A DNA stretch of 64,000 nt from a virus, in IMG/VR virus record IMGVR_UViG_3300009180_003294, positions 1 to 64,000 of that record; one strand, written 5' to 3'. Shown in pieces: positions 41,775-60,838 of the stretch. Under the pieces are notes generated by a model. The model was not told the origin of the DNA and did no database searches. It saw nothing but the letters and a program-made list of their open reading frames with translations. Positions within the stretch are counted from its first letter, which is position 1; every line of letters starts with the position of its first letter. Position numbers and translations under genes: made by a program.

Positions 41775-43243
41775 ACATTTGGGGAATTAGTGCCAACAGT
41801 CACGATGCTGCCGTGTCAGTCTGGCATGATAAACAATTACAATTCGCAGCACACAGTGAAAGATACTCTGGAATTAAAAACGACGGAGATCTCTGTGCAG
41901 GTATCATCGAAGATGCTGAACAGTACGGCAAGCCAGACTTAATCGTTTGGTACGAAAATCCTGTATTAAAAACTGCCCGCCAGTTTCAAGCCGGCCAAGG
42001 CAACCGTACAGTGGAAAATGATGTACGATCATATCTAGCAAAATACAATCTAAATCAGCCTTTGGTAATAGGCGAACATCATAAAAGCCATGCTGCCGCA
42101 GGTTATTATACCAGTGGGCTAGCAGATGCCACTGTAGTAGTAATTGACAGCATAGGCGAGTTTGAAACGCTGACTGTTTGGCAAGGCATTGGCAATGACC
42201 TAAAGAAAGTATATGCACAGGGATACCCAGATAGTCTGGGACTATGGTTCAGTGCTATGACACAGCGCATTGGACTAAAGCCCAACGAAGAAGAATATAT
42301 TCTCATGGGCATGGCGGCTTATGGTGACGCCAACAAATATAAAGCAGACATATACAATGATTTCTTTGCTGTGATCAACGGACCCGAAGTTAAATTCAAA
42401 CGTAACCTGCATCGTGGCTGTCCAGATTGGCGTTTAGATTTATTAAAAGAACAAGATACTTTTGATCTAGCTGCCGCTACTCAACAAGTGTATACTGAAA
42501 TACTACAAGGTATCAGTCGTTGGGCTAGAGCAACGTTACCTAGCAAGAACATTGTATTAATGGGTGGATGCGCCCTTAATTGTGTGGCCAACAGTGAGAT
42601 CACAGGAGACTGGGATCGAGTTTGGATTATGCCAAACCCCGGAGATGCTGGAAGTAGTGTTGGTGCAGTTGCTGCCTTCTTTGGCGAACAAGTTACGTGG
42701 CCGGGGGCATATCTTGGCACAAACATGGGCAAAGAATATCCAGTTGAACAGACTATTGACATACTTACAAAAGATAAAATTGTAGGTGTTGCCACAGGAC
42801 GTGCAGAGTTTGGACCAAGAGCATTGGGACACCGCAGTTTATTGGCAGACCCCCGAGGCCCAGAAATCAAAGACACAGTCAATGCTATTAAACGCAGACA
42901 ACAATTCCGTCCATTCGCACCAGCAATCCTAGAAGAATACGTGCATGAATATTTTGACATGCCCACAAACATAACAGCCAGCCCATTCATGCAATTTGTT
43001 GCTAAATGTACAAAGCCTGAAGAGTTTCCTGCTATTATACATAAAGATGGCACTAGTCGTGTACAAACTGTGAGTAAAAATGACAGTCCTGGATTTAGAA
43101 AGCTGTTAGAAGATTGGCACAGCTTAACTGGATGTCCAATGTTACTTAATACTAGTTTGAATATCAAAGGCCAGCCAATGGTTAATAATATTGAACATGC
43201 TAGAGATTTTTATTTAAAGTACAATGTTCCTGTAGTAACGTGA
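41771..43243 (+). CDS. Carbamoyltransferase, NodU/CmcH family
   Basis: The 490-residue protein begins IWGISANSHDAAVSVW and has GEHHKSHAAAGYYTSGL, VVIDSIGEFETLTVW, EEYILMGMAAYGD and FGPRALGHRSLLADPRG, all hallmarks of the family, which transfers a carbamoyl group from carbamoyl phosphate (via carbamoyl-AMP) to a hydroxyl of a sugar or natural product. Length is shorter than the usual 550-600, mainly in the middle. The C-terminal YrdC-like part is present (RRQQFRPFAPAIL). The acceptor may be the sugar made by the preceding genes. Related genes occur in other marine T4-like phages. Confidence 0.88.
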   Translation: MNIWGISANSHDAAVSVWHDKQLQFAAHSERYSGIKNDGDLCAGIIEDAEQYGKPDLIVWYENPVLKTARQFQAGQGNRTVENDVRSYLAKYNLNQPLVIGEHHKSHAAAGYYTSGLADATVVVIDSIGEFETLTVWQGIGNDLKKVYAQGYPDSLGLWFSAMTQRIGLKPNEEEYILMGMAAYGDANKYKADIYNDFFAVINGPEVKFKRNLHRGCPDWRLDLLKEQDTFDLAAATQQVYTEILQGISRWARATLPSKNIVLMGGCALNCVANSEITGDWDRVWIMPNPGDAGSSVGAVAAFFGEQVTWPGAYLGTNMGKEYPVEQTIDILTKDKIVGVATGRAEFGPRALGHRSLLADPRGPEIKDTVNAIKRRQQFRPFAPAILEEYVHEYFDMPTNITASPFMQFVAKCTKPEEFPAIIHKDGTSRVQTVSKNDSPGFRKLLEDWHSLTGCPMLLNTSLNIKGQPMVNNIEHARDFYLKYNVPVVT

Positions 43244-45669: not shown

Positions 45670-46516
45670 TGATAATTTAACATGGTTGTTTGGCATTGAA
45701 AAGTTTTTCAATTTTATCAATGAATCCGAAAAAAAGAAATTTATCAGGAATATTATCAATATGAAATATTCCGAAGCTAATTCTAAACCATGGCCATTAA
45801 AAGATTTAATTTCTTCGGACTATGAGCTATATCCTGACTCATACAGAAGTGATCGTTTGAATTTTTATGCAAATATCTGTGCCGAAGATAAATTGGTTAC
45901 TAAAGAATTGATTTATATTATGAATTCAATATGGACAGATGATTCTGTACTTCAGAAGTTACATAAAATAACATTATTAAATGACAGTATACTTGCAACT
46001 ATTTTTAGTAAAAGTCAAATACTCAGCAAATTATGGATGGCAGAAACACTGAGTAAACATAATTTATCGTTTAACAATATTTTGTTAATTGGTGGCTGGC
46101 TGACTCATCACAGTCTATTTCTAAAAGATATAAATTATAAACATTTGTACAGTATAGATCCGGATGTTAGTATGAATCCTTTAATTAATATCATGAATCC
46201 AAATGCATTTATCTGTAATAAAAATATCGAACACTGTTTTAATGGAAACGACGACATCATCTTTAATGATAGTATAATTACTCCGGACTTGGTTATTAAT
46301 ACCAGTGCAGAACACATGGATAATACTTGGTTCGAAAAGTTAAAGCCTGGCACTACAGTATTATTGCAATCTAACAGCAGTCCGGATTACCAACATATAA
46401 ATTACTGTCAAGACTTTGGTGTGTTTTTAAAAAAATATCCAGTAACTAAATTGTATTTTAGAGGAGAAACTGTTCTTCCTAGTTACAAACGTTATATGTT
46501 ATATGGAGTTAAATGA
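45662..46516 (+). CDS. Class I SAM-methyltransferase-like protein
   Basis: The 284-residue protein has a helical N-terminal half and then a Rossmann-type stretch: NNILLIGGWLTHHSLFL in the place of motif I, YSIDPDVS with the acidic residue after the second strand, then TPDLVINTSAEHMDNTWFE and KPGTTVLLQSNS. This is the order of a SAM-dependent methyltransferase, although motif I (LIGGWLT) is atypical. The gene is the last before the radical SAM series and overlaps it as ATGA. It could methylate the same product; this is inferred. Confidence 0.5.
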   Translation: MDNDNLTWLFGIEKFFNFINESEKKKFIRNIINMKYSEANSKPWPLKDLISSDYELYPDSYRSDRLNFYANICAEDKLVTKELIYIMNSIWTDDSVLQKLHKITLLNDSILATIFSKSQILSKLWMAETLSKHNLSFNNILLIGGWLTHHSLFLKDINYKHLYSIDPDVSMNPLINIMNPNAFICNKNIEHCFNGNDDIIFNDSIITPDLVINTSAEHMDNTWFEKLKPGTTVLLQSNSSPDYQHINYCQDFGVFLKKYPVTKLYFRGETVLPSYKRYMLYGVK

Positions 46517-47688
46517 TGTATAAATCGTCTGAAATTACCACAGTTCATTTAGAAGTCACCGAACGTTGTAATGCCAGCTGTCCGCAGTGCGCCAGGAACA
46601 TCAATGGCGGAGAAGTAAATCCGCAGTTACACAATGCTGAATTAAGTTTAGACGATGTTCGAATAATCCTCAAGCCCGAATTTATCAAGCAATTAAAACG
46701 TTTGTATATGTGCGGTAACTACGGCGATCCTATCAGCGCCAACGATACACTGGAAATATTTGAATACATTCGCAGTCACAATGCCAAAATGCAACTGAGC
46801 TTTCACACAAACGCCAGTGCTAAAACTCCTGAATGGTGGAGCAAGTTGCCAGCAGCCATGGGCAAAAGTCATTACGTTGTATTTAGCGTGGATGGATTAG
46901 AGGATACCAATCACTTATATCGTCAAGGCACTGTTTGGAAAAAGATCATGGAAAATGCTCGAGCCTTTATACAAGCTGGAGGCAGAGCACGTTGGGACTA
47001 TATCGTATTTGGACACAATGAACATCAAGTAGAAGAAGCCAGAGCATTGGCAACCAGCATGGGCTTTGAAAAATTCAATGTTAAAAAATCCAATAGATTC
47101 TTTAGCAATACCAAAGGTGCAGTCAAGACAAATCATCAGGCCGGAAACCGTAAAGGCAGTACTACTCAAATGTTAAGCATGCCGACTAATCCAGAATATC
47201 AAAATGCCGCACTAAAACAATTAGAAAGCCTAAGCAAAGATAAAGGCGAAATTAAAATTGATTTCATGACAACTGTGGCAGAGTTAAAAGGTAAAATAGG
47301 ACAACAAAAATTTAATATAAATCCTGCTGAGAAAAAAGACATGGAAAAGTATTGGGACTCTGTGGAAATCAAATGTAAAGTTGCTGAAGAGAAAAGCATT
47401 TATATTACAGCAGAAGGATATTTACAACCATGTTGCTGGACTGCGGGTCAGATGTATGTTTGGTACTGGAAAGAACGTGGCGGACAGATCTGGGATGCAA
47501 TTAATGCCGCCGGGCTAGATTCTTTAGATCTGCGAGTACATGATTTAAATGAAGTCATTGACGGCAAGTTTATGCAAGAAATTATTCCAGAATCATGGAA
47601 TAAACCTAGTTGTGCTGAAGGTAAACTAGCAGTATGTGCCAAGACCTGCGGGAATAAATACGATGCGTTCAGTGAACAATTTAAATAA
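46513..47688 (+). CDS. Radical SAM/SPASM-type enzyme, CPQC subtype (first copy)
   Basis: The 391-residue enzyme has C19-x3-C23-x2-C26 (ERCNASCPQC) at the very N terminus, MCGNYGDPISA in the place of the GGE motif, and VVFSVDGLEDTNHLYR. The C-terminal part carries cysteines in QPCCWTAG and CAEGKLAVCAKTCG, fitting a SPASM/twitch module with an auxiliary Fe-S cluster. SPASM enzymes modify peptides or carbohydrates, for example by dehydrogenation, cross-linking or epimerisation. A second copy of this subtype lies at 53186; both share the segment AGGRARWDYIVFGHNEHQVE. Confidence 0.85.
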   Translation: MMYKSSEITTVHLEVTERCNASCPQCARNINGGEVNPQLHNAELSLDDVRIILKPEFIKQLKRLYMCGNYGDPISANDTLEIFEYIRSHNAKMQLSFHTNASAKTPEWWSKLPAAMGKSHYVVFSVDGLEDTNHLYRQGTVWKKIMENARAFIQAGGRARWDYIVFGHNEHQVEEARALATSMGFEKFNVKKSNRFFSNTKGAVKTNHQAGNRKGSTTQMLSMPTNPEYQNAALKQLESLSKDKGEIKIDFMTTVAELKGKIGQQKFNINPAEKKDMEKYWDSVEIKCKVAEEKSIYITAEGYLQPCCWTAGQMYVWYWKERGGQIWDAINAAGLDSLDLRVHDLNEVIDGKFMQEIIPESWNKPSCAEGKLAVCAKTCGNKYDAFSEQFK

Positions 47689-47732: not shown

Positions 47733-49133
47733 ATGGCAGAACCAAGCAAAACTTTTTGTATCTTACCGTGGGTACATCTGAGCACAAGACCCAACGGGCA
47801 TATGCGTGTGTGTTGTACCGCAAATGCAAGCAGTGTAGGACCTACAAATGATAAACTACATGGCGGAGAAGTAGGCATTCTTAAAAATGCCGACGGTAAA
47901 CCTGCTAACTTAAATCACACAGACTTTCTAAGTAGTTGGAATAATGACTACATGAAGAATACAAGACTTAAAATGCTGGCCGGCGAAGAACCAGATAGTT
48001 GTACCAAGTGCTACAAAGAAGAACGCGAAGGTCATAAATCTAAACGACAATGGGAAACCAAGTACTGGAGTCAGCGTGTTGATTTAGATAAGCTATTGGC
48101 AGATACTCAAGAGGACGGCAGCGTTCCTCCTCATATTGCTTATATTGACATGCGCTTTGGTACTAAGTGTAACTTGGCCTGTGTGATGTGCAGTCCGCAT
48201 GACAGTAGTTTGTGGGTACCGGAATGGCAAAAGATGTATCCTAATGTTACTAACCCTGTGCTTAAAGATAGTATGCAGTGGGGCAACAAGGGACAGGAAA
48301 ACGGTGCCAGTTACAATTGGCATAAAAACAATCCTCAGTTCTGGGAACAGCTATGGGAACAGATCCCTAACATGAAACAGTTATACTTTGCTGGTGGTGA
48401 GCCTTTGATCATTGAAGAGCATTATGCTATTCTAGAAGAATGTATTAAGCGCGGCTATGCCAAAGACATGGAAATTCGTTACAACAGTAATGGTGTTGAA
48501 TGGCGTGAAGATTTGTTTGAACTATGGAGTCATTTTAAACTGGTTCGTTATCACTACAGCGTTGATGCAGTGGGCGAACGCAATGACTACATTCGTTATC
48601 CCAGTGTGTGGGAAAGAAACTTGGAAGCATTTAGACAGTTAGACAACGAAACTGGAAGTAATGTGGAAATTTCGATTGCCTGTGCTGTACAAGCACTAAA
48701 CATTTATTACATTCCTGAGTTTCTAAAATGGAAACTAGAGCATGGCTTTAAGAAGATTAACATGTGGCCGTTTGGCGCGGGCGGCATTAACTACCACTTT
48801 GTTTATCATCCACCACACTTAAATGTTAAGATATTGCCAGCCTGGTTCAAGGATGAGATCGAGCGTAAGTACGAAGAGTTTATTCCTTGGTGGAAAGAGA
48901 ATTGGAAACTAGGTGTACCTGCATGGTATGAAGGTAAAGTCACAGAAGAGATGTGGTTGAACGCTGACTACGGCATTGACCGTTTGCGCGGCATGGTTAA
49001 ATTTGCCAAAAGCGAAGACTGGAGTGTACGTTTACCAGAAATGAAAGAATATTTAGAGTTACTGGATAAACAGCGTGGTACCAATTTCTACGAAACATTC
49101 CCCGAGATGAAAGACATCTTCAAAGGACTATGA
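47733..49133 (+). CDS. Radical SAM protein with N-terminal twitch module (copy A)
   Basis: This 466-residue protein starts with the auxiliary-cluster cysteines C9 (FCILPWVHL), C27-C28 (MRVCCTA), C90 and C93 (DSCTKC). The SAM cluster follows at C146, C150, C153 (CNLACVMC), then LYFAGGEPLI. The order 'C...PW...CC...CxxC then CxxxCxxC' is that of the family annotated as 'twitch domain-containing radical SAM protein'. Conserved C-terminal segments (GINYHFVYHPPHLNVKILP) suggest a full TIM-barrel plus extra domain. Its role is unknown. Three such genes lie in a row here, joined by ATGA overlaps. Confidence 0.88.
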   Translation: MAEPSKTFCILPWVHLSTRPNGHMRVCCTANASSVGPTNDKLHGGEVGILKNADGKPANLNHTDFLSSWNNDYMKNTRLKMLAGEEPDSCTKCYKEEREGHKSKRQWETKYWSQRVDLDKLLADTQEDGSVPPHIAYIDMRFGTKCNLACVMCSPHDSSLWVPEWQKMYPNVTNPVLKDSMQWGNKGQENGASYNWHKNNPQFWEQLWEQIPNMKQLYFAGGEPLIIEEHYAILEECIKRGYAKDMEIRYNSNGVEWREDLFELWSHFKLVRYHYSVDAVGERNDYIRYPSVWERNLEAFRQLDNETGSNVEISIACAVQALNIYYIPEFLKWKLEHGFKKINMWPFGAGGINYHFVYHPPHLNVKILPAWFKDEIERKYEEFIPWWKENWKLGVPAWYEGKVTEEMWLNADYGIDRLRGMVKFAKSEDWSVRLPEMKEYLELLDKQRGTNFYETFPEMKDIFKGL

Positions 49134-50461
49134 CCATGCAATTAAATCAAAAAACATTTTGCATAGTTCCTTTTGTACAACTTAATACTCGTGGCAAAGG
49201 TGATGCTAGAGTATGCTGTAGTATTTCTAATGTAGACCGTGGTATTCCTAAACACATGACTATAGACGAAATCAACAATGAATCGTATAACAACGACACT
49301 GAAGTTTTTAACTTATTCAATGACAGCATTTCTGATCTTTGGAACAGTAAGTTTATGAAAGACTTTCGTATTAAGATGCTCAACGGCGAAACTATTCCAA
49401 ATTGTAGCTTTTGTTATCGCATGGAAGAAAGCGGATTAGGCAGCAAACGCACAGGTAAGAATAAACGTTTCTTAGATAAAGTGCTACCTTTATTGCAAAG
49501 TTATTACGACACAAACGGTTATGTTGATGTAATGCCACAATGGTGGGAAATACGTTTGAGTACTAAATGTAATTTGTCTTGCATTATGTGCAGTCCTAAC
49601 TTGTCCAGCATGATGTACAAAGAATACACCAAGTGGGAACCGAGTTTAACCAAGCAAATGAAGGGCAGTTTAGATATTGCACGTTCATTTGGTGAAGAAT
49701 ATTTAAGCGAAAGTCAATTCTTTAAAGATCAAGTTTTAGACAATTTAAAGAATGTGTTGTACATGGAGTTTAGAGGCGGAGAAGTATTTGCAGATAAACA
49801 CAGCGTAGACTTTATGCGAGAAATATCACTGACAGAACATGCCAAAAACATATCTCTGGATATCAGTACTAACGCAACATTAATCGATGATGATATTGTA
49901 GAGTTGTTGAATAGATTCAAAGGCGGATTGCTTCGCTTTAGCATTGATGCATACAAAGACGCAGACGAATATATTCGCCCACATACAAATTGGGATCATG
50001 TAATCACTAGTATTAACAATTCAACTAACTTGCACAGTGAATGGGAAACAGTTACGCAAACTTGTTTGCAAACACTGAACTGTATTGGTATAACAGAGTT
50101 AATGAAATTCTTTGATAACTACTGTGAAACCGCTAATAATACTAGATTCCATTTAGGTGTTACCAGTGTTAGGGGTAAAGAATGGTTGAGACATGAGCTT
50201 GTGCCATTAGAACTTAGATTAGAAGAAGTCAGTAAGCTAGAAGAGTTTATGACTACCAGCTGGTTATGCACAAAAAGCCCGCATAAGAAACGAGAAATTA
50301 AAGCAGTACAAGGTTTAATTGTAGCATTACGCACAGAAGAAATCAAAGATCAAAGTCTCAACGATAAAGCAAGAGAATATTATCTCAAGTTAAATGAGTT
50401 GAGAAATGTCGATTACTGGGAAGTATTCCCGCACATAGAATTTTTAGGAACGAATAAATGA
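49130..50461 (+). CDS. Radical SAM protein with N-terminal twitch module (copy B)
   Basis: 443 residues. N-terminal cysteines C11 (FCIVPFVQL), C29-C30 (ARVCCSI), C92 and C95 (NCSFC) precede the SAM cluster C147-C151-C154 (CNLSCIMC) and the GGE segment (MEFRGGEVF, a variant of AGGEP). The C-terminal half is less similar to copies A and C, so it may recognise another substrate or partner. The gene overlaps both neighbours as ATGA, so the three copies would be made in similar amounts. Confidence 0.87.
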   Translation: MTMQLNQKTFCIVPFVQLNTRGKGDARVCCSISNVDRGIPKHMTIDEINNESYNNDTEVFNLFNDSISDLWNSKFMKDFRIKMLNGETIPNCSFCYRMEESGLGSKRTGKNKRFLDKVLPLLQSYYDTNGYVDVMPQWWEIRLSTKCNLSCIMCSPNLSSMMYKEYTKWEPSLTKQMKGSLDIARSFGEEYLSESQFFKDQVLDNLKNVLYMEFRGGEVFADKHSVDFMREISLTEHAKNISLDISTNATLIDDDIVELLNRFKGGLLRFSIDAYKDADEYIRPHTNWDHVITSINNSTNLHSEWETVTQTCLQTLNCIGITELMKFFDNYCETANNTRFHLGVTSVRGKEWLRHELVPLELRLEEVSKLEEFMTTSWLCTKSPHKKREIKAVQGLIVALRTEEIKDQSLNDKAREYYLKLNELRNVDYWEVFPHIEFLGTNK

Positions 50462-51831
50462 ACATAGATAATAAAGCAACACTGTGTCCGGTACCTTGGA
50501 TGAGTCAAAGTTTAAGAGCCAACGGCGACATTCGTATCTGCTGCCAAGCACAGCACGGACCCACTGGCGGTATCTTAAAAGATGAAAACGGCAAAGTCTT
50601 AAATGCAAGAACTTCCGAACTTATCACTGCAAGAAATAGTCCATTGGCCAAAGAAATTAGAAAAGACATGATGGAAGGCAAATGGCATGATGAATGTGTC
50701 AGATGCAAAACTGAAACAGATTCTGGTATGCGTAGCCGTTTAGAATATGAAAACGAAATTTGGGTTGAACGAGGAAGATTTGACTGGGATGATCTTTTAT
50801 CTAAGACTCAAGCAGATGGTACCATTGACACTGAAGCAATAGATTGCACATTCTATGATCTACGTTTTGGTAACTTATGTAATTTAAAGTGCCGTATGTG
50901 TGGACCCACTGACAGCAGCCAATGGTATGACGATCAAGTAGCATTGTGGAGTGACACGTACAAAGACAGTCACGGTAAAGTTAAGTTAGTTCTAAACGAC
51001 AAGGACAAATACGAGCCTGAAGTCAACGTATACAACTGGCACGAAAGCGAAAACTATTGGGCACAAATGGATGCCAACATTCCGCAGATCACCAAGTTAT
51101 ACATTGTAGGCGGTGAGCCGTTGATGATTGACAGACACTACGAGTTTCTGCAAAAATGTGTAGATGCTGGTCAAGCTAAGAAAATGATTGTCGAGTATAA
51201 CACAAACTTAACAAACATTCCTCCTAGAGCATGGGAAGTATGGAAGCATTTTAAACAAGTTAATATCGGAGCAAGTGTAGATGGTGTGGGAGATATTAAT
51301 CATTACATGCGCTATCCTGCAGACTTTGCAACAATACACAAAAACTTATTAAAGCTAAGTCAAGCCGAAGGTAACTTTAAAGTTTGGATTGCGGCAACAA
51401 TTAATGTATTCAATGTATTACACTTTCCAGAATTCATGGAATGGATACTGTTAAACAAGATGCCACGAATCAATGACGACGAATGGCGCCCAGTGATAAC
51501 TCCGCATCCGTTGCATGGACCAAAGTTTTACAATGTTCGAATGTTGCCCAAGTTTGCCAAAGACGCAGTTAAAGCAAAGTACGAAGCATATAAGCCCAAG
51601 TTATTAAAAATAATCGACGACAGTGATTTCGCAGAAGAACGAAAAGTCAGTAGTAGAAAAGAAGTAGTATCATTGTTAGATCAATATGTTGATTACATGT
51701 ATGCACAGGACTTCAGCGAACACGTTCCTGCGTTCTGGCATGCAACTAGAAAGCTGGATAAAATTCGCGGACACAGCATAGAAGATTATATTCCAGAACT
51801 ATATGAATTAATCAAAGGAACAGAACCGTGA
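50458..51831 (+). CDS. Radical SAM protein with N-terminal twitch module (copy C)
   Basis: 457 residues. Auxiliary cysteines C10 (LCPVPWMSQ), C28-C29 (IRICCQA), C80 and C83 (ECVRC); SAM cluster C141-C145-C148 (CNLKCRMC); YIVGGEPLM as the GGE motif. C-terminal ITPHPLHGPKFYNVRMLP parallels VYHPPHLNVKILP in copy A, so A and C are closest in this array. The stop overlaps the GTG start of a PP-loop gene (GTGA), coupling it to the ATP pyrophosphatase pair. Confidence 0.88.
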   Translation: MNIDNKATLCPVPWMSQSLRANGDIRICCQAQHGPTGGILKDENGKVLNARTSELITARNSPLAKEIRKDMMEGKWHDECVRCKTETDSGMRSRLEYENEIWVERGRFDWDDLLSKTQADGTIDTEAIDCTFYDLRFGNLCNLKCRMCGPTDSSQWYDDQVALWSDTYKDSHGKVKLVLNDKDKYEPEVNVYNWHESENYWAQMDANIPQITKLYIVGGEPLMIDRHYEFLQKCVDAGQAKKMIVEYNTNLTNIPPRAWEVWKHFKQVNIGASVDGVGDINHYMRYPADFATIHKNLLKLSQAEGNFKVWIAATINVFNVLHFPEFMEWILLNKMPRINDDEWRPVITPHPLHGPKFYNVRMLPKFAKDAVKAKYEAYKPKLLKIIDDSDFAEERKVSSRKEVVSLLDQYVDYMYAQDFSEHVPAFWHATRKLDKIRGHSIEDYIPELYELIKGTEP

Positions 51832-52493
51832 TAGTAAATTGCATTAATAATAAAACTATTGAATTTAATTTACCCCGGCATTTTAAGAATGTTGGCTTGA
51901 AGATTTCCGGCGGCGCCGATAGTGCTCTAATTGCGTATATGCTGGCAAAATACATTGTAGAAGAGCGACCCGATCTGACTATTATTCCTATAACAGTTAC
52001 TCACGCTGACAAAAATTATCAAGTAGAATTTTCTAATAAAATAATTAAATTTATAGAAGCACAGTTTGGTATTAAATTTGGCGAACAGTTTACCAGCATG
52101 GCAGAGTCTGAAGAGACATATACACAAACACAGGTAGAATTAGTTAATAAAGTATTTTCAGAAAATGCTATAGACTGTTTGTACATGGGTTTAACTCACA
52201 ATCCTCCCATGGAAGTCATGATGACATTTGCACCAATGGTAGTTGCTTACGGTTTTCCAGACAGAAACCATACTTCGCCTAAAAGTCAAAAAATCAGTAC
52301 AAGCAGATATGCACCATTGATTAATATGGATAAACAAGAAATAGCAGAGTTATACAAGCAATTTAATCTAATGGATACATTGTTTCCGTTAACAAGGAGT
52401 TGCGAAGATGTTACTACAGATTTTAGCAAACATTGTAAAATAAAATGCTTTCATTGTCACGAAAGATTCTGGGGCTTTGGTAGATACGAATAA
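51828..52493 (+). CDS. PP-loop ATP pyrophosphatase, QueC-like, with C-terminal Cys cluster (GTG start; copy 1)
   Basis: The 221-residue protein starts at GTG, overlapping the previous stop. VGLKISGGADSALIAYML holds the PP-loop SGGxDS (27-32), used to adenylate a carbonyl or similar group of the substrate. The C terminus has C192, C203, C207 and C210 (CKIKCFHC) followed by ERFWGFGRYE, recalling the zinc site and end of QueC, although the spacing C-x10-C-x3-C-x2-C differs from QueC. QueC converts a carboxylate to a nitrile with ammonia; relatives form amides and other products. The true substrate here is unknown. Confidence 0.78.
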   Translation: MIVNCINNKTIEFNLPRHFKNVGLKISGGADSALIAYMLAKYIVEERPDLTIIPITVTHADKNYQVEFSNKIIKFIEAQFGIKFGEQFTSMAESEETYTQTQVELVNKVFSENAIDCLYMGLTHNPPMEVMMTFAPMVVAYGFPDRNHTSPKSQKISTSRYAPLINMDKQEIAELYKQFNLMDTLFPLTRSCEDVTTDFSKHCKIKCFHCHERFWGFGRYE

Positions 52494-52502
52494 AGGATTA
52501 AT

Positions 52503-53186
52503 ATGATAATAAACACATCACAGGGCAATTTAGAATTTAATTTGCCAGAAAATTTTAAAAATGTCGGCATTCGACTATCGGGCGGCTGCGACAGTGCTAT
52601 CATCGGATATTTGTTGGGCAAGTATGTAAAAGAAGAACGCCCTGACATATCTTTAGTTGCCATCAGTTTAGATGTGCAGGGCAAGGATTATCAAATCAAT
52701 ATTGCAAAAAAAGTAATGAACTTTATTGAAAATGAATTCGATATTAAATTTAAAAATCATTTTACTGGTTTAATAGAAGATCAACGAATATCTGGAAAGA
52801 TGCAAACAGATCTATGCAGTCGATTACTAGCCAACAACGAGATAGATTGTTATTTTACAGGCTTAACACGCAATCCTCCAGACGAAGAAATGAGAAAATT
52901 TGCAGTTAATATTTTTGATATTCCAGCAGCCGAAAGTACGATTCATAGAAGTCACAACGGAACAAAACTCACTGTTGATGGCAACAGATATTTTCCTTTG
53001 ATTAACATAGATAAAAAAGGCGTTGCTGAGTTATATCAACAGTTTGATTTATTAGATCGTTTATTTCCATTGACAAAAAGCTGTGAAAATTTTTCACCAG
53101 AATCAATGGCAGCAATCAGTGTTCACTGTGAAACATTGTGCTGGCAATGCTGTGAAAGAGGCTGGGGCTTTGGTAGGTTCATTTAA
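52503..53186 (+). CDS. PP-loop ATP pyrophosphatase, QueC-like (copy 2)
   Basis: The 227-residue protein is a tandem paralogue of the preceding gene: VGIRLSGGCDSAIIGYLLG (SGGxDS 26-31), ERPDISLVAISLDVQGKDYQ and GLTRNPPDEEM align with copy 1. The C terminus has C194, C209, C213, C216, C217 (CETLCWQCC) and ERGWGFGRFI. Both copies keep the nucleotide motif and the Cys cluster, so both are probably active or form a heterodimer. SD AAAGGATT precedes the ATG. Located between twitch-type and SPASM-type radical SAM genes. Confidence 0.78.
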   Translation: MIINTSQGNLEFNLPENFKNVGIRLSGGCDSAIIGYLLGKYVKEERPDISLVAISLDVQGKDYQINIAKKVMNFIENEFDIKFKNHFTGLIEDQRISGKMQTDLCSRLLANNEIDCYFTGLTRNPPDEEMRKFAVNIFDIPAAESTIHRSHNGTKLTVDGNRYFPLINIDKKGVAELYQQFDLLDRLFPLTKSCENFSPESMAAISVHCETLCWQCCERGWGFGRFI

Positions 53187-54355
53187 TGAAATATTTAGAT
53201 ATCAGTGAAATCGAAAGCGTACAGATTGACCATACAAGTCGTTGTAATCTGGCCTGTCCACAGTGTGCAAGAATATACAACGGACAGCCAAATCCGGAAA
53301 TGCCGCTGGGTGAGTTGAGCTTAGACGACTATAAAAACTTCTTTACTCCCACGTTAATTAATAATGTAAAGCAAATAACACAGTGCGGTAACTACGGTGA
53401 TATAATATCTAGTTCTAATATATTAGAATGTTTAGACTGGCTACGTTCAGCAGGCAGTCGAGCCAACATCACAATCATGACCAATGGCAGTGCTAGAACA
53501 GCAGACTGGTGGAAAGACTTGGCTAGAATATTGGGCAAAGAAGGCAAAGTTGTTTTTAGTATAGATGGTTTAGAAGATACAAATCATTTGTACAGAGTTA
53601 ATAGCAATTTTAACAAGATTATCGAAAATGCTCGAGCATTTATATCAGCGGGCGGCAGAGCTCGCTGGGACTATCTAGTGTTTGCACACAATGAACATCA
53701 AGTAGAACAAGCAAAAAAAACAGCACAAGACTTGGGCTTTATACAATTCTCCGTTAAGAAAACAAATAGATTTATCAACGAAAAGAATTATCAAGGCTGG
53801 GTCAAAACTGAATTAGCTGAGCCTGTTATTAAAAGACAAAAAGCACCTCCCGGTGTTATGTCAATGATGACGTTGCCGCAGGGAGCAACACATATAATTC
53901 AAAGTCCCACAACAGACAAGTACAAAGCACAGAGTAGTTTGCAGTTTGATGACATTGTAAAAGAACATGGTAGTTGGCAGGGATATATTGATTCTACTTC
54001 AATTAGCTGTAAATTTAAAAAACAAAAAGCAGTCTTCTTAGACTTCGAAGGTAGAGTTTGGCCCTGCACTTGGACTGCCAGTGGAATATATCACTATGGA
54101 GAAAATACTCAAAAAGAACAGGCAAAACGTTTGTTGGATCATTATGGCTGGGACTTTAATTCCATTAGAAGCCACAGCATAGAAGATATAATGAATCACG
54201 AGTGGATGTCAAAGACATTGGTAGAAAGCTGGGGACTAACTTCGGATAGTAGACCAATTGAAAAGCTAATGTGCTGTGGCAGAACCTGCGGAACCAGCTA
54301 TGATTTTTCTAGTTCCAGTAGTGCCAATAGGGAGGTAATCAGTTTACAAAAATGA
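53186..54355 (+). CDS. Radical SAM/SPASM-type enzyme, CPQC subtype (second copy)
   Basis: The 389-residue enzyme has C20-x3-C24-x2-C27 (SRCNLACPQC), TQCGNYGDIISS in the GGE position, VVFSIDGLEDTNHLYR and AGGRARWDYLVFAHNEHQVE, nearly the same as the 46513 copy. C-terminal cysteines (ISCKFKKQ, WPCTWTAS, LMCCGRTCG) fit an auxiliary cluster. The two copies are clear paralogues set on either side of the three twitch-type genes and the PP-loop pair. The last residues (SSSSSANRE) are low complexity. Shares an A with the previous stop (TAATG). Confidence 0.86.
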   Translation: MKYLDISEIESVQIDHTSRCNLACPQCARIYNGQPNPEMPLGELSLDDYKNFFTPTLINNVKQITQCGNYGDIISSSNILECLDWLRSAGSRANITIMTNGSARTADWWKDLARILGKEGKVVFSIDGLEDTNHLYRVNSNFNKIIENARAFISAGGRARWDYLVFAHNEHQVEQAKKTAQDLGFIQFSVKKTNRFINEKNYQGWVKTELAEPVIKRQKAPPGVMSMMTLPQGATHIIQSPTTDKYKAQSSLQFDDIVKEHGSWQGYIDSTSISCKFKKQKAVFLDFEGRVWPCTWTASGIYHYGENTQKEQAKRLLDHYGWDFNSIRSHSIEDIMNHEWMSKTLVESWGLTSDSRPIEKLMCCGRTCGTSYDFSSSSSANREVISLQK

Positions 54356-54918
54356 ATAACATTAAAATATTAAATAATTTTCCAAAAGAACTAATGGACG
54401 AGTTTAAAAATTACTACGAATTAAAATACAAGGGCAAGGATCCTGAAAACGTATGGAGTGATAAACACAGTGCTTCGGTGATATCAAATAGAGATATAAA
54501 TTATTTCAACAAATTTCTACCCGAAAATGCCGACACTATAGACTTGTATTTTATTTACAAAGGAAGAATGATGCCACACATTGATAGAGGACGCAAAACT
54601 GCATTTCAAATTCCCATAGACATAGATTTAGAAAATAGTTATACATACTCTTTAAAAAATAGAGACCTTTCTATATTAACACCTTCTTCTATAACTTTCA
54701 GTAGAAAAAACAATGAATCTATTAATCGACCAGAACATTGGTTTTATGAATGGAACGAAGATGCATTTGATCGATACAATTTAGAAAAACCCATTTTACA
54801 AAATGCAGGAATGCCGCATGGTGGAGCAAATTTTGGAGACACTTGTAGAATATTTTTCTCCGGATCGTATACAAATGATTTCGACGACATGGTTGAAAAA
54901 TTTAAGAATTGGCTATGA
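54352..54918 (+). CDS. 2OG-Fe(II) oxygenase-like protein
   Basis: The 188-residue protein shows MMPHIDRGRKTAFQIPI, with H76-x-D78, and GMPHGGANFGDTCRIFFSG, with H156 and R166 ten residues later. HxD...H...R with this spacing is the iron- and 2-oxoglutarate-binding pattern of the dioxygenase superfamily. In cyanophages such enzymes hydroxylate unknown substrates. It lies between two radical SAM genes and overlaps both as ATGA, so hydroxylation or desaturation may be a step of the same pathway. Total length is close to the minimal jelly-roll domain. The family call rests on the motif, not on an alignment. Confidence 0.72.
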   Translation: MNNIKILNNFPKELMDEFKNYYELKYKGKDPENVWSDKHSASVISNRDINYFNKFLPENADTIDLYFIYKGRMMPHIDRGRKTAFQIPIDIDLENSYTYSLKNRDLSILTPSSITFSRKNNESINRPEHWFYEWNEDAFDRYNLEKPILQNAGMPHGGANFGDTCRIFFSGSYTNDFDDMVEKFKNWL

Positions 54919-56060
54919 CAATTTCTAAATCATTCTGCATTATGCCCTGGACAGGGATATCCACCGAAGCCAGCGGAGGTTATCGCCCCTGTTGTTGGAT
55001 GGATGGCACACATCTGTATAGAGGTTCTATCGACGATTACGAAACCAGTAAATATTTGTCTGATATGAAAGAAGATTTTTTAGAAGGCCGATATCCCAGT
55101 ACTTGCAATCGCTGTAAATGGAATGATGAAAATGACATGGTGTCTAAACGTCAACGCGAAAATAAAAAATGGTTGGAAAAAAATAACATAGAAGATTATG
55201 CAGTCACTAATTATTCTATTATCGATCTAAGGCTTAATAACAAATGCAATTTACTGTGTGTAAGTTGCGGACCAAAAAGTTCTAGTTCTATATTTGAAGA
55301 AGTAGAACAGAATCAAGACAAGCACTTAACGCATTATAAATTTATATACAACAAAGTTAAAAATATGAATTTGTCTACTCCATACTCTGACGAAGAAGTA
55401 GATAAACTTATAGAACGTATCAATCCCACTAGCAGAGTATATTTCACAGGCGGTGAGCCTACACTAGTTAAGCCTGCATTTAGAGTGCTGGAAAAGATGC
55501 TGGAAAAAGGTTATAACAAAGATGTACCCATTGAGTTTAACAGTAACTTTCAAGCACTGAATAAAAAGTGGATAGAGCAATTAAAACAGTTTAAAGGCTT
55601 GATGATGCCTAGTATTGATGCTGTTGGTTCACAAGCAGAATTAATTAGATATGGATCGAAGTGGGAAGACGTAGACTACAATTTTAGATATTTTTTTAAA
55701 GAGTGTACGGGCTTTAGAATTAAAATTTGGCCCACTATATCGACATTAAACATATTGTATATCAAAGATATTATTAATTGGGCAGAAAGCTTTGAATCTG
55801 ACAGAATAGAAATATCATTGGATAATCGTTTGTCGGCACCTGCCTGGCTTGATATAAAAAATATGCCGGATAGTTTAAAAGATAAAGCCCGAACATATTT
55901 AAGCGACGATCCGAGATTCTCGGATATATTAAGACACTTAAATGAAGTTTCAAATGTCGCCGAACAAAAAAACTTTATAATTAATATGGATAAATTAGAT
56001 GCCATACGAAATACAAATTGGAGAGAAACATTAAATGAAATTGCTAATGGCTGGGAATGA
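54915..56060 (+). CDS. Radical SAM protein with N-terminal twitch module (copy D)
   Basis: I use ATG 54915 (ATGA overlap; a TTG two codons upstream is in frame). The 381-residue protein has C8 (FCIMPWTGI), C26-C27 (YRPCCWM), C64 and C67 (STCNRC), then C111-C115-C118 (CNLLCVSC) and VYFTGGEPTL. It is about 70 residues shorter than copies A-C, mostly at the C terminus. The gene overlaps the SDR-like gene that follows by 26 bases. Confidence 0.87.
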   Translation: MTISKSFCIMPWTGISTEASGGYRPCCWMDGTHLYRGSIDDYETSKYLSDMKEDFLEGRYPSTCNRCKWNDENDMVSKRQRENKKWLEKNNIEDYAVTNYSIIDLRLNNKCNLLCVSCGPKSSSSIFEEVEQNQDKHLTHYKFIYNKVKNMNLSTPYSDEEVDKLIERINPTSRVYFTGGEPTLVKPAFRVLEKMLEKGYNKDVPIEFNSNFQALNKKWIEQLKQFKGLMMPSIDAVGSQAELIRYGSKWEDVDYNFRYFFKECTGFRIKIWPTISTLNILYIKDIINWAESFESDRIEISLDNRLSAPAWLDIKNMPDSLKDKARTYLSDDPRFSDILRHLNEVSNVAEQKNFIINMDKLDAIRNTNWRETLNEIANGWE

Positions 56061-57329: not shown

Positions 57330-58436
57330 TTAGTTTGTTATATATTTATATATATTCCTGAAATCTTGTCCTCTGGAATTATCTAAGAAACTTGTTATAC
57401 GCATGAACTTTGCTGTCAAATGACTATCGTCTCTAGATAGCATTAGCTTTGAAATATATTCGCATTGACTTCGAACATTTTCGTCAGAATAATTAAAGTT
57501 TTTAAACTTATCAGCAATAAGCTCTTTTGATTCTTTTGGCAGCACAGTTATACATAAAAAATCCGGAAAGCTAAGGTGAGTTGTATTGAATTTAATTTTT
57601 TTAGCTGTAAGCCATTCCAAAGTCTCGGGCAAGTGAAGTACATTAAAAATACTGATAGTCGGTCGTGCTTGCAATCGAAGATCAAACTCATCTTGTAATG
57701 TAATGAATTTTTCTATGTTAGTTATAACAGCATCATAGTCGCTGGGGTAACGAAGATATTCGAATTCCTCCTTGACAATGCTGTCCATGCTGACCACTAA
57801 TTCAACATGTTTAAATTGTTTCAATCTATCTACAATTTCCGCTTTTGGATATACTGTGCAGTTGGTACTGTAATTAAGGAAAATATTTTTACTGTGTCCA
57901 GAGTCTATAATATAATCTAATAGGCGCCAATGATCAGGAGTTACAAATGGTTCGCCTCCAGTGATTTTTAAATGTTTTAAATTTGGAACAAACGGGAAAA
58001 TGTCTCGTATGTCTATTTTTGTTGTTTTTGTGGCAAAGCCCTTTAATGCAAGTTCTTCTTCGTACCACTTATCGCTGTACTTACTATCGCACATGCGACA
58101 TTTCAAATTGCATTCGTTGCTGATTGCAAGCTCGAGCCATTCTATCTTTGGATTGTCGGTGTCTACTTGACCCAGTAACTGATTTTCGTTGTAACGTTGT
58201 CTCAAACTCTTCTTACCGTTGTCTTCTTCTTCGTTGCAACGAACACATCCTGCAATTCTTTCTCCGGCGAAACTTGCTCTGCGTAATTCGTTCATTTCCT
58301 CGCTGAAGAAATTTCCTTCGATTGTATTTTGAAAATACGGAACGTTATTTGATTCAAATCGGCAGCAGGGTTTAATCCTGCCAGTGCCATCAACAAATTG
58401 ATGATTCCAAAAGGCAGAGCATATATTATTGTTCAT
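57330..58436 (-). CDS. Radical SAM protein with N-terminal twitch module (copy E, minus strand)
   Basis: I set the start at ATG 58436, because a TATAAATA octamer lies five bases upstream and includes any earlier start (a frame up to 58457 runs through the promoter). The 368-residue protein has C6 (ICSAFWNH), C24-C25 (IKPCCRF), C64 and C67 (AGCVRC), SAM cluster C109-C113-C116 (CNLKCRMC) and LKITGGEPFV. It is the only radical SAM gene here in the minus direction. It is followed 13 bases on by the nitroreductase gene. Confidence 0.87.
   Translation of the reverse strand: MNNNICSAFWNHQFVDGTGRIKPCCRFESNNVPYFQNTIEGNFFSEEMNELRRASFAGERIAGCVRCNEEEDNGKKSLRQRYNENQLLGQVDTDNPKIEWLELAISNECNLKCRMCDSKYSDKWYEEELALKGFATKTTKIDIRDIFPFVPNLKHLKITGGEPFVTPDHWRLLDYIIDSGHSKNIFLNYSTNCTVYPKAEIVDRLKQFKHVELVVSMDSIVKEEFEYLRYPSDYDAVITNIEKFITLQDEFDLRLQARPTISIFNVLHLPETLEWLTAKKIKFNTTHLSFPDFLCITVLPKESKELIADKFKNFNYSDENVRSQCEYISKLMLSRDDSHLTAKFMRITSFLDNSRGQDFRNIYKYITN
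57343..57350 (-). promoter_or_regulatory. Late promoter TATAAATA for the nitroreductase gene
   Basis: Exact TATAAATA on the minus strand (57350-57343), inside the end of the radical SAM coding region. The predicted leader of about 20 bases contains AAGGAAA, a proper ribosome-binding site. Confidence 0.7.
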
Positions 58437-58441
58437 ATTAG

Positions 58442-58449
58442 TATTTATA
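58442..58449 (-). promoter_or_regulatory. Late promoter TATAAATA (minus strand), leaderless spacing
   Basis: On the minus strand TATAAATA-CTAAT-ATG: exactly five bases separate the octamer from the ATG at 58436. It is back to back with the plus-strand late promoter at 58460-58467. Confidence 0.82.
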
Positions 58450-58459
58450 GATAGCAAAT

Positions 58460-58473: not shown

Positions 58474-59607
58474 ATGAAACCAGTTGCAAGTTATTTTAAA
58501 TTTAATCCAACGGGTGCTTTTTCGGTAGATTGGTATATAGGAAAACGTTGTAACTTTGCTTGTAGTTATTGCGTTGATTACTTACACGATTATACAAGCC
58601 CGCATGTTCCTTTAGAGAACATGAAAAAATTAGTTGATGTACTATACGAAAAACACAAGTCGAATATATTATGGAGCCTAACAGGCGGAGAACCCACTAT
58701 CAATCCTGGATTTATGGATCTGTGCAAATACATAAAAGAAAAAGGCAGCAGGTATGTCAGTTTGACTACTAACGGTACACGTACATTAGACTATCACAAA
58801 GAATTATTTAGATATATTGATGGTGTAACATTAAGTTTTCACTTTGAATTTATGGAACAGCGCATTGAAGAATATATTCACAAGTGTATAGAACTAGACA
58901 AGTGGCGACTTGAACTTAATAAAAATCTAGTTCAGGGTCAGCCTAAAAAAACTCTAATACTTAGATTTATGGTAGAGACCGGTCAGTTACCCAACGTTGA
59001 ACGCATGGAAAAGGCTTTCAGAGACGCAGGCATTACTAATATAGAACATCGTTATATTCGTCCTCCTAGTGCAAATGCAAAGAACATGCAAACTGAGGAG
59101 AAGTATGCGTTTACAGATGAAAACGATCCTAATCAGATTGTTAATCCTGAACAAGTACAACGCATAGAAACTAAAGAAGCAACTTTTTATAAAAAAGAAG
59201 AATTAGAATCCCTTAGCACAATATATAAAAGTACCGCAGATCCTGACAAACGCAAACTTAAATTTTGGTTTCAAGATGAACAAGGCAAGTACGCTGACAC
59301 AGATTATCATTACAATGAGTTAAACTTTGACAAAAAGAATAATTATCAAGGATGGCTATGTTGGGCAGGCGCCAAGCATTTAAAAATCATTCCTGATGGC
59401 GGAATTTATATTGGTAGTTGTCACGTGGGCGGACGTCGAGGCAACATATATGATAAAGACAGCATAGACTTGCCAGACGATCCTATTCGTTGCAATAAAT
59501 GGCGCTGTACCGATAACACAGATTTAAAAGTACCCAAGATCAAAGACTGGGAACATTATCATTTAGTCAAGGATATGATAGAATGGGAAAAGAACAATGA
59601 CAAATAA
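58474..59607 (+). CDS. Radical SAM protein, CSYC subtype (copy 1)
   Basis: The 377-residue protein has VDWYIGKRCNFACSYC (C26, C30, C33), LWSLTGGEPTINPGF and TTNGTRTLDYHKEL. C-terminal cysteines occur in WLCWAGAKHL, SCHVGG and CNKWRC, suggesting a partial SPASM/twitch module, with GGIYIGSC and DLKVPKIKDW as family marks. This N-terminal Trp-(x)IG-(x)RCN form is shared with the next two genes. The neighbourhood and the absence of a precursor peptide make a small-molecule or protein substrate possible, but neither is shown. Confidence 0.86.
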   Translation: MKPVASYFKFNPTGAFSVDWYIGKRCNFACSYCVDYLHDYTSPHVPLENMKKLVDVLYEKHKSNILWSLTGGEPTINPGFMDLCKYIKEKGSRYVSLTTNGTRTLDYHKELFRYIDGVTLSFHFEFMEQRIEEYIHKCIELDKWRLELNKNLVQGQPKKTLILRFMVETGQLPNVERMEKAFRDAGITNIEHRYIRPPSANAKNMQTEEKYAFTDENDPNQIVNPEQVQRIETKEATFYKKEELESLSTIYKSTADPDKRKLKFWFQDEQGKYADTDYHYNELNFDKKNNYQGWLCWAGAKHLKIIPDGGIYIGSCHVGGRRGNIYDKDSIDLPDDPIRCNKWRCTDNTDLKVPKIKDWEHYHLVKDMIEWEKNNDK

Positions 59608-60838
59608 CAATCCGTATTCGGTAATATCAAACAGTCATCCAGAGACTATGCACATAGAATGGGTGGTTAATAATGTTTGTAATTACAAATGTAGTTACTG
59701 TATGCCAGATCTACATTCTGGATCCAGCGGACAGCCTCATTTCGAAAATAGTTTAAAGTTTTTGGACTTTGTACATGAAAAGGTTAACCCCAATTATAAG
59801 ATGCTGACACTCAGTGGCGGTGAGCCCACTATGTGGCCTAGACTAAGTGAGTTTTTGCAAAAAATGAATCCTAACTACTACACGACTATTGTAACTAATG
59901 GAAGTAGAACATTAAGATGGTGGGAAGAATTTGTAGTTGATGCAACAAATTTGTCAGTTGTTACTATCAGTATACATTTAGAATATGCCGACATGGAACA
60001 TATTATAAACGTTTGTAAAATACTTCACAAAAAGATAAGAACAACAGTGTTGATATTATTTAATCCTGCCAAGAGAGAACAAGCAAAAATGTTTGCAGAA
60101 AGATTCAAGGCCGAACAATTAAATATAACTTACACGATTAAACCAATAACCACACGCTATGAAGAAGACACTGATAATGCTTCTTTAGAGTATACCGCAG
60201 AAGATAAAAAATTTATCAAAGACAATACAGTATATTCACAAAAAGGATTTCCATCGTTGCCAACTTCTGCAGAGATGGTAGTCGACGGTGTTAAAAAAGA
60301 TTCGTTTTTCGCTGGTAGAATGATCGCAGATAAAACTAATAAATTTACAGGTTGGTGGTGCGAAGCTGGAAGAAAACGATTGACTATATGGCATGATGGC
60401 AATGTTTATGGAGCACAGTGCCATACTGCCAAGAAAAATGTGTTGGGGAACATCAATGACGGCGAAATCAAAATTATCAACGGATTAGTATGTGATATTA
60501 TGCACTGCGCTTGCTTGCCTGATCTACGAATTCCGAAAAGAAAACATTATGATTTGAAAAAAGAACTGCAAGGAGATTCTGCGGCAATTGTTGCATTAGA
60601 TGCAGCCGGTAGCTTAACTACTATGCCTTTGCGTCAATTACAATTAGAAGCAGCCAGGGTGATAAGTAGCATGGAAGCTACTAACGATAATATACATAAA
60701 TTTAATGTAGAAAGCAGACACAACAGCCAACTATGGTATAGGTCTGCTCTTATATGGTATATTAACAAATATGGAAATTTACCAAGTATTACCGGTCCAG
60801 GAAAAGAAATAAAATTTATCTACGAACAAAATGAGTGA
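59597..60838 (+). CDS. Radical SAM protein, CSYC subtype (copy 2)
   Basis: The 413-residue protein has IEWVVNNVCNYKCSYC (C28, C32, C35), MLTLSGGEPTMWPRL and VTNGSRTLRWWEEF. C-terminal segments WWCEAGRKRLTIWHDG and GAQCHTAKKN parallel WLCWAGAKHLKIIPDG of copy 1, and MHCACLPDLRIPKRKH parallels its end. An extra C-terminal tail of about 85 residues (from GDSAAIVALDAAG) is present only here. Overlaps copy 1 by 11 bases and copy 3 by 8. Confidence 0.86.
   Translation: MTNNNPYSVISNSHPETMHIEWVVNNVCNYKCSYCMPDLHSGSSGQPHFENSLKFLDFVHEKVNPNYKMLTLSGGEPTMWPRLSEFLQKMNPNYYTTIVTNGSRTLRWWEEFVVDATNLSVVTISIHLEYADMEHIINVCKILHKKIRTTVLILFNPAKREQAKMFAERFKAEQLNITYTIKPITTRYEEDTDNASLEYTAEDKKFIKDNTVYSQKGFPSLPTSAEMVVDGVKKDSFFAGRMIADKTNKFTGWWCEAGRKRLTIWHDGNVYGAQCHTAKKNVLGNINDGEIKIINGLVCDIMHCACLPDLRIPKRKHYDLKKELQGDSAAIVALDAAGSLTTMPLRQLQLEAARVISSMEATNDNIHKFNVESRHNSQLWYRSALIWYINKYGNLPSITGPGKEIKFIYEQNE

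What the first reader, a model, noticed from the sequence alone, without database searches (positions are those of the whole stretch)
51828..53186. Tandem QueC-like PP-loop pair sandwiched by radical SAM genes
Both copies keep SGGxDS and a C-terminal CxxxCxxC followed by ER-x-x-GFGR. QueC acts after the radical SAM enzyme QueE in making 7-cyano-7-deazaguanine, so a PP-loop/radical SAM pairing has a precedent. No QueD, FolE or base-transferring partner is in this window, and the Cys spacing differs from QueC. This suggests a QueC-derived activation (amidation, nitrile formation or thiolation) of another acid.
Basis: partly seen in the sequence, partly recalled or inferred. Interest (0 to 1): 0.78.

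Follow-up and report, generated by a model that had tools for sequence, protein, structure and literature searches.

The report
Virus-only QueC-like ligase pair
An uncultured T4-like ocean virus carries two side-by-side copies of an ATP-using enzyme related to the queuosine enzyme QueC but lacking the residues QueC needs for its own substrate, set in a large island of radical-SAM enzymes beside the tail genes, so it probably activates some other acid to build an unknown virus-made chemical decoration.

Summary
In detail: two intact adjacent PP-loop genes (51828-52493, 52503-53186; 45% identical) keep SGGxDS and a four-Cys C-terminus and lie between radical SAM (rSAM) genes. Orthologous pairs evolve under strong purifying selection (dN/dS 0.07-0.08); a related virus has three tandem copies. 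They belong to a large family seen here only in uncultivated virus contigs: eight members matched none of 50,697 phage records, and a signature scan of 84,980 cellular genomes gave one chance hit. Fold and profiles place it in the N-type ATP pyrophosphatases; of four relatives tested only QueC (PF06508) aligns end to end. It is not ordinary QueC: YxQxHxxE, VPxRN and YPDC are in 20/20 canonical QueC and 0/30 family members, and the essential Tyr after the first zinc Cys is Glu, as reported for Cap9. No QueD or TGT is in the record. The window subgroup is tied to rSAM enzymes (32/32 records; one rSAM-PP fusion), but more distant members often sit beside terminase, RNR or DNA polymerase instead. 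Best guess: adenylation of a carboxylate other than CDG, then amide formation, as a tailoring step in the virus's host-recognition island. Substrate unknown.

The parts
51828..52493 (+). PP1: QueC-superfamily PP-loop ATPase, 221 aa (GTG start)
   Evidence: PF06508 27.8 bits, above Pfam cut-off 22; AF2 model pLDDT 93.4
51906..51923 (+). PP1 SGGADS pyrophosphate-binding loop
   Evidence: sequence; columns at least 90% conserved in A5
52401..52484 (+). PP1 C-terminal four-Cys region SCE...HCxxxCFHCHERFWGFGR, aligning with the QueC zinc site
   Evidence: 58-residue local profile alignment to QueC, 34% identity; Pfam QueC match 161-219
52503..53186 (+). PP2: tandem paralogue, 227 aa, 45% identical to PP1
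   Evidence: dN/dS to orthologue 0.067
52578..52595 (+). PP2 SGGCDS loop
   Evidence: sequence
53082..53177 (+). PP2 four-Cys region SCE...HCxxxCWQCCERGWGFGR
   Evidence: sequence
50458..51831 (+). Twitch-domain radical SAM protein, overlapping PP1 start by 4 bp
   Evidence: NF033640 374 bits
53186..54355 (+). Radical SAM/SPASM-like protein, sharing 1 base with PP2 end
46513..47688 (+). Radical SAM (SPASM-like paralogue of 53186)
   Evidence: PF04055; E 1.5e-87 to 53186
47733..49133 (+). Twitch rSAM; its cluster recurs in 17 of 23 records holding the family
49130..50461 (+). Twitch rSAM
54352..54918 (+). Small oxygenase-like protein (2OG/Asp-hydroxylase-like reading by eye only; no Pfam assignment)
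   Evidence: sequence; one search gave no significant family
54909..56060 (+). Twitch rSAM
   Evidence: NF033640 279 bits
56035..56604 (+). SDR-like protein
   Evidence: weak PF13561 6e-4
57330..58457 (-). Twitch rSAM
   Evidence: NF033640 300 bits
58474..59607 (+). rSAM
   Evidence: PF04055 52 bits
59597..60838 (+). rSAM fused at its C-terminus to the about 74-aa conserved SMALL domain (60614-60835)
60831..61997 (+). rSAM; its cluster recurs in 11 of 23 records
31265..32665 (+). Twitch rSAM near the tail-fibre end of the island
41771..43243 (+). Carbamoyltransferase
   Evidence: PF16861 183 bits
37235..38809 (+). Nucleotidyltransferase-APH-like fusion
   Evidence: PF12804 26.8 bits, PF01636 27.3 bits
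43268..45669 (+). Three paralogous glycosyltransferase-like genes with a DxD-like motif (GT role inferred, no Pfam hit in the window copies)
16287..24542 (+). 2751-aa virion structural protein upstream of the island, VrlC candidate (inferred)
   Evidence: PHROG 10938 626 bits

Best explanation
PP1 and PP2 are two working, diverged copies of a virus-restricted subfamily of the QueC superfamily. They most likely bind ATP through SGGxDS, adenylate the carboxylate of a substrate other than 7-carboxy-7-deazaguanine, and hand the acyl group to an amine or ammonia, giving an amide or an amide-linked conjugate rather than a nitrile. The four C-terminal Cys would hold a structural zinc as in QueC. The acid or the acceptor is probably made or modified by the neighbouring radical SAM enzymes, as one tailoring step of the host-recognition island of a T4-like marine myovirus, whose product most plausibly decorates a surface glycan or tail fibre. 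Shown here: gene structure, selection, QueC-superfamily relation, loss of QueC motifs, rSAM context of this subgroup. Inferred: zinc, adenylation, amide product, nature of the acid, final target.
For: Intact SGGxDS and four Cys in both copies; dN/dS 0.07-0.08 against orthologues. 26/30 members match PF06508; hhalign global alignment works only for QueC (prob 93.6, 201 columns) against TilS, NadE, TtcA (prob about 0); last 58 residues 34% identical to QueC. Motifs YxQxHxxE, VPxRN, YPDC 20/20 in canonical QueC, 0/30 here; Tyr after the first zinc Cys 20/20 in QueC, Glu in 26 of 28 readable members here. PMC13329287 reports Y35, R99, Y131 and Y189 as essential for queuosine formation and gives Cap9 as CE(x)6CxxCxxCxD; Cap9 aligns. 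rSAM in 32/32 records of the signature set; 26 of 32 distinct genes have an adjacent same-strand rSAM or are fused to one; rSAM-PP fusion of 830 aa in two contigs at 99.96%. Carbamoyltransferase and nucleotidyltransferase in the same island; UDP-sugar dehydrogenase in relatives.
Against: No enzyme assay or substrate. Top Foldseek PDB hits are NcsA (a tRNA thiolase) and TilS, QueC not in the top 50. The island is so rSAM-rich (198/636 ORFs of 100 aa or more) that adjacency is expected about half the time. More distant members often have no rSAM nearby (40 of 74 loci have one), so the rSAM partnership may be secondary. The glycan target rests on neighbours whose own functions are weakly supported.
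Confidence: 0.45

Rival explanations
1. Cap9-like protein conjugation: PP1 and PP2 join an rSAM-made acid to the amine of a viral protein (tail fibre or the 74-aa SMALL protein), giving a modified protein rather than a small molecule.
For: Cap9 and QatC show that QueC-family proteins are used or proposed for protein N-terminal modification (PMC11996544, PMC13279940). The family shares Glu after the first zinc Cys with Cap9 (PMC13329287). A highly conserved small protein sits in many of the same islands, directly beside PP in G054, G058 and the L206-type loci.
Against: SMALL starts M-D or M-E, not the M-G of the known acceptors. SMALL is widespread without PP nearby (PP in 4 of 80 loci). The Cap9 substrate motifs are absent: [YF]xQ(x)5E in 0/30.
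Confidence: 0.2
2. Sulfur transfer: the four Cys bind an iron-sulfur cluster and the enzymes thiolate a nucleotide, tRNA or rSAM product, like NcsA, TtcA or LarE.
For: NcsA is the best PDB fold match (E 1.5e-7, TM 0.48) and best PDB profile match; PP2 matches TtcA at 1.4e-7.
Against: The TtcA match covers the N-terminal P-loop half and TtcA has no global profile alignment. The Cys region aligns with the QueC zinc site, and no other Cys is conserved.
Confidence: 0.12
3. RNA modification of the TilS or related kind, acting on virus or host tRNA.
For: TilS is second in Foldseek and 15/30 members match its NCBIfam model weakly. PMC7029224 reports a tRNA(Ile)-lysidine synthetase in some pelagimyophage genomes, which could include members of this family under another name.
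Against: All matches are far below the TilS cut-off (22.8 against 93.6 bits for PP1). TilS fails global profile alignment. Length about 221 aa leaves no room for a C-terminal tRNA-binding domain. No tRNA gene in the window.
Confidence: 0.08
4. Ordinary QueC making preQ0 for virus DNA or host tRNA.
For: PF06508 match. Two jumbo records (G055, G061) hold QueD, and FolE/QueE-like ORFs flank it in G055, with no canonical QueC found in them.
Against: Canonical motifs 0/30. QueC equivalog score 23 against cut-off 150. QueD in 4/32 and TGT in 0/32 records.
Confidence: 0.05

Closest known systems
QueC, 7-cyano-7-deazaguanine synthase (PF06508 / TIGR00364)
   Same: N-type ATP pyrophosphatase fold, SGGxDS, P-L-x4-K motif, C-terminal Cys region with 34% identity over 58 residues
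   Different: Lacks YxQxHxxE, VPxRN and YPDC; Tyr after first zinc Cys is Glu; score far below the equivalog cut-off; no QueD or TGT in the window record
Cap9 of type IV CBASS (QueC-like, N-terminal deazaguanylation)
   Same: Small QueC-like protein with SGGxDS and CE...CxxCxxC...[ED]R (PMC13329287)
   Different: Cap9 keeps a YxDC and a Y/FxQ(x)5E motif (PMC13329287), not kept here; no CD-NTase or Cap10 partner seen; rSAM context instead
QatC of qatABCD
   Same: QueC-superfamily protein with a replaced CDG-recognition motif (PMC13279940)
   Different: QatC is about 400 aa with N- and C-terminal extensions needed for defence; these are about 220 aa; no PADLOC match
NcsA / TtcA / LarE PP-loop sulfurtransferases
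   Same: PP-loop fold; NcsA is the top Foldseek PDB hit
   Different: QueC-type four-Cys C-terminus; no global profile alignment with TtcA
WbpG-type N-acetyl sugar amidotransferases
   Same: QueC-superfamily PP-loop used in O-antigen synthesis (PMC13329287), a precedent for a glycan role
   Different: WbpG-type has a CxxC(x)6CxC motif and is 300-400 aa (PMC13329287); not compared by profile here
Host recognition cluster of pelagimyophages (PMC7029224) and rSAM-rich T4-like ocean viruses (PMC5332604)
   Same: Island beside baseplate and tail-fibre genes with rSAM cassettes and glycosyltransferases; a T4-like genome with 12 rSAM genes
   Different: The QueC-like family and the GTx-MT-SMALL core were not found described in the passages read

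Membership tests
N-type ATP pyrophosphatase / PP-loop superfamily | SGGxDS loop and PP-loop fold | tested here: met
   29/30 members SGGxDS (the exception is an N-terminally cut sequence); AF2 pLDDT 93.4 with Foldseek hits to NcsA, TilS, NadE
QueC superfamily PF06508 | Pfam QueC match above curated cut-off | tested here: met
   PP1 27.8 bits against 22; PP2 15.5, below; 26/30 members match at E 0.01
Canonical QueC | TIGR00364 equivalog cut-off 150 bits | tested here: not met
   23.1 bits for PP1, 12.9 for PP2
Canonical QueC | YxQxHxxE, VPxRN, YPDC motifs | tested here: not met
   0/30 against 20/20 in a QueC sample
Canonical QueC | C(x)8CxxCxxC zinc motif | tested here: not met
   Four Cys present, but first gap 10-28 residues and 0/30 match the exact pattern; only 3/20 of the canonical sample do, so the pattern is loose
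Canonical QueC | Neighbouring or genomic queD/queE | tested here: not met
   No PF01242 in the window record; 4/32 family-holding records
Canonical QueC | preQ0 synthesis from CDG | not testable with these tools
   needs enzyme assay
Cap9 | CE(x)6CxxCxxCxD | tested here: inconclusive
   CE and CxxCxxC present in most members, but spacing differs and the end is xER
Cap9 | Y/FxQ(x)5E and YxDCxxxF substrate motifs | tested here: not met
   [YF]xQ(x)5E 0/30; Y.DC in 3/30 and these are not shown to be in register
Cap9 | CD-NTase partner with N-terminal Gly | not tested
   no such model was run on the records; none was seen among the proteins scanned
QatC | about 400 aa with QatB-binding extensions; PADLOC model | tested here: not met
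   221/227 aa; no PADLOC match for PP1 or PP2
TilS | TIGR02432 cut-off 93.6 bits; tRNA-binding C-terminal domain | tested here: not met
   22.8 bits for PP1; length 221 aa; no global profile alignment
NcsA/TtcA sulfurtransferase | Cys set binding [4Fe-4S] and thiolation | tested here: inconclusive
   fold match only; metal not testable
Pelagimyophage host recognition cluster | Island between VrlC and gp14 with tail fibres | tested here: inconclusive
   baseplate wedge and a 2751-aa structural protein upstream, tail fibre genes beside the island in relatives; gp14 not looked for

The most novel reading that the evidence does not exclude
Marine T4-like viruses carry an undescribed, exchangeable biosynthetic system: a fixed core of glycosyltransferase-like protein, methyltransferase-like protein and a 74-aa carrier or substrate protein, followed by variable sets of radical SAM enzymes and QueC-like ligases that together build new chemical groups on a virus-encoded protein or glycan, with the tandem QueC-like ligases joining rSAM-made acids to it.
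Probability: 0.17. Interest if true: 0.86.

Novelty: new variant of a known kind. Interest (0 to 1): 0.6.

Why it matters
QueC-type enzymes have lately turned out to modify proteins in bacterial immunity, and a recent survey of the family (PMC13329287) does not describe this group in the parts read here. A large virus-only branch that has lost the QueC substrate motifs but keeps the catalytic loop and Cys site implies new acid substrates. Its place among about a dozen radical SAM enzymes beside tail genes makes the question of what these rSAM islands of ocean viruses produce open to test: the fused rSAM-PP protein and the small conserved protein are compact starting points.

Tried and rejected
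1) Ordinary QueC or deazaguanine DNA: rejected on motifs and missing partners. 2) Chance or decayed copy: rejected by dN/dS and conservation. 3) A rule that the family always pairs with rSAM: held in the first signature set (32/32 records) but a looser scan showed many members beside terminase, RNR and DNA polymerase, so the claim was cut back to the window's subgroup; on a 97-sequence tree the rSAM/no-rSAM label needs 18 changes against a shuffled mean of 27.5 (minimum 18 in 300). 4) SMALL as an acyl carrier or RiPP recognition element: no Foldseek hit with E below 5, so no assignment. 5) A cellular origin: the one genome hit is an antisense chance match. 6) Cultured relatives: eight family members and SMALL gave no phage record; a ninth member, run at E 1, gave only two weak hits, E 0.3 or worse; only a weak rSAM match in Vibrio phages K566/K567. 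7) Solved relatives of the GT-like, MT-like and flanking rSAM proteins by sequence: none.
Full report
Observation. PP1 overlaps the end of the twitch rSAM gene 50458..51831 by 4 bp and PP2 shares a base with the rSAM/SPASM-like gene 53186..54355. Both carry SGGxDS and four C-terminal Cys. Against orthologues in L005, PP1 has dN/dS 0.077 (80% identity) and PP2 0.067 (91% over 152 codons). L005 carries three tandem copies, of which the middle one has no counterpart in the window.

Family and distribution. A DNA pattern for CxERxWGF[GN]R[YF] hit 33 stretches of 2.9 million virus contigs. Searches show family members in nearly all of them (the very short L024 and L028 gave no match). The same pattern in 84,980 cellular genomes gave a single hit that is an antisense chance match. 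Eight different members gave no tblastn match in 50,697 phage records; a ninth, run at E 1, gave two weak hits. The family is therefore known here only from uncultivated virus contigs, within the limits of those scans.

Relation to known families. A 30-sequence alignment (A5) has invariant T123, P126, K169, S191-C192, C203, C207, C210, E212-R213. The AF2 model of PP1 has pLDDT 93.4 and pTM 0.92. Foldseek against the PDB gives NcsA (E 1.5e-7, TM 0.48), TilS and NadE, with QueC outside the top 50; against viral models the top named hits are phage proteins annotated 7-cyano-7-deazaguanine synthase (TM about 0.54). These are superfamily-level matches. Profile against profile, only QueC aligns globally (prob 93.6, E 3.4e-8, 201 columns), while TilS, NadE and TtcA do not; in local mode NadE (90.8) and QueC (86.8) both score through shared segments, NadE at the P-loop and QueC at the Cys region. 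The QueC local match is 34% identical over 58 residues. 26/30 members match PF06508.

Not canonical QueC. In a sample of 20 canonical QueC from one bacterial phylum, YxQxHxxE, VPxRN and YPDC occur in 20/20; in this family, 0/30. PMC13329287 reports Y35, R99, Y131 and Y189 as essential for queuosine formation in E. coli. The residue after the first zinc Cys is Tyr in 20/20 QueC and Glu in 26 of 28 readable family members; the same paper gives CE for Cap9, and the Cap9 chain aligns there. PP1 has GFPDR and many members GPxDDR in a region that may be a degenerate YPDC-R, but that register is my reading and not a structural alignment.

Pathway partners. The window record has no PTPS/QueD and no TGT. 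Of 32 records with the signature, 4 have QueD and none TGT; DpdA-type proteins may be too divergent for that model. In one jumbo record (G055) ORFs that read as FolE, QueD and QueE lie together, far along the contig from the PP gene, with no canonical QueC found, so CDG as a substrate cannot be ruled out in those few viruses.

rSAM link. All 32 signature records have rSAM genes, 1 to 22 each. Of 32 distinct PP genes in 23 records (33 rows, one gene cut across two loci), 26 have an adjacent same-strand rSAM gene or are fused to one, and 30 have one within three genes, but 198 of 636 ORFs of at least 100 aa in these loci are rSAM, so adjacency alone is weak. The best single item is L013:159-2648, one 830-aa frame with a twitch rSAM domain and a PP-loop domain, found again in a contig from another sample at 99.96% identity; in L021 the two parts are adjacent genes. 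Against a universal link, only 40 of 74 looser-scan loci have an rSAM in the held DNA; others lie beside what read as terminase large subunit, ribonucleotide reductase and family-B DNA polymerase (by eye). On a tree of 97 sequences the context label is partly clustered (18 changes, shuffled mean 27.5, minimum 18). The window pair groups with the L005 copies among mostly rSAM-island members.

The island. Upstream lie a baseplate wedge protein and a 2751-aa virion structural protein, and in relatives tail-fibre genes directly precede the island. This matches the host recognition cluster described for pelagimyophages, where rSAM cassettes were noted as variable content (PMC7029224), and T4-like ocean genomes with 12 rSAM genes (PMC5332604). 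The window island also has a carbamoyltransferase, a nucleotidyltransferase-APH fusion, aldolase-like and shikimate-dehydrogenase-like genes, glycosyltransferase-like genes, SDRs and a nitroreductase.

Mechanism. Established chemistry of the superfamily (QueC, Cap9, NadE, asparagine synthetase) is adenylation followed by attack of a nucleophile. With SGGxDS, the conserved Lys and the Cys site kept and the CDG motifs lost, I judge adenylation of another acid and amide formation most likely. Glu in place of the QueC Tyr, as in Cap9, leans towards stopping at the amide, which is an inference from one residue. Whether the acceptor is ammonia, a sugar amine or a protein is open; the sugar reading is favoured slightly by the neighbours, the protein reading by the Cap9/QatC precedents.

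SMALL. A 74-aa protein, a C-terminal domain of the rSAM 59597..60838 in the window, is a separate gene in 13 of the 23 records, and at least 252 virus stretches encode a relative. In 80 loci examined, of the 71 where its upstream gene was called, that gene is the 45662-type putative methyltransferase in 61 and a GT-like protein in 10; 74 of 80 loci have an rSAM and 4 a PP gene within the held DNA. Mean column identity is 71%, median pN 0.17 against pS 0.76, a three-helix model (pLDDT 86) without a PDB match. It may be the more informative lead on what the island does.

Noticed in passing
window 60614-60835 (C-terminal domain of 59597..60838); free-standing in L026:8987-9214 and many other loci: A highly conserved about 74-aa protein of unknown fold class follows a GT-like and a methyltransferase-like gene in hundreds of marine virus contigs, with variable rSAM and tailoring genes after it.
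   Followed up: partly
L013:159-2648 and L153 (G066): Natural fusion of a twitch rSAM and a QueC-like PP-loop domain, 830 aa.
   Followed up: partly
L160:11600-13697: A family member next to an ORF that reads as SufB (Fe-S assembly), by eye only.
   Followed up: no
L250:4810-8717 (G055 jumbo record): ORFs reading as FolE, QueD and QueE in one run, with no canonical QueC found in the record.
   Followed up: partly
L264, L266, L267, L262, L283: Other family members directly beside terminase, ribonucleotide reductase or DNA polymerase genes of T4-like viruses, a second genomic niche without rSAM.
   Followed up: partly
window 37235-43243: Nucleotidyltransferase-APH fusion, shikimate-dehydrogenase-like, class II aldolase-like and carbamoyltransferase genes in a row, suggesting an unusual sugar or cyclitol pathway.
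   Followed up: no
OZ196521.1:161-167 kb (Vibrio phage K566): A sequenced phage with several rSAM genes in a row, a possible laboratory relative of the rSAM part; no PP-family or SMALL match in the fetched 24.8 kb.
   Followed up: partly
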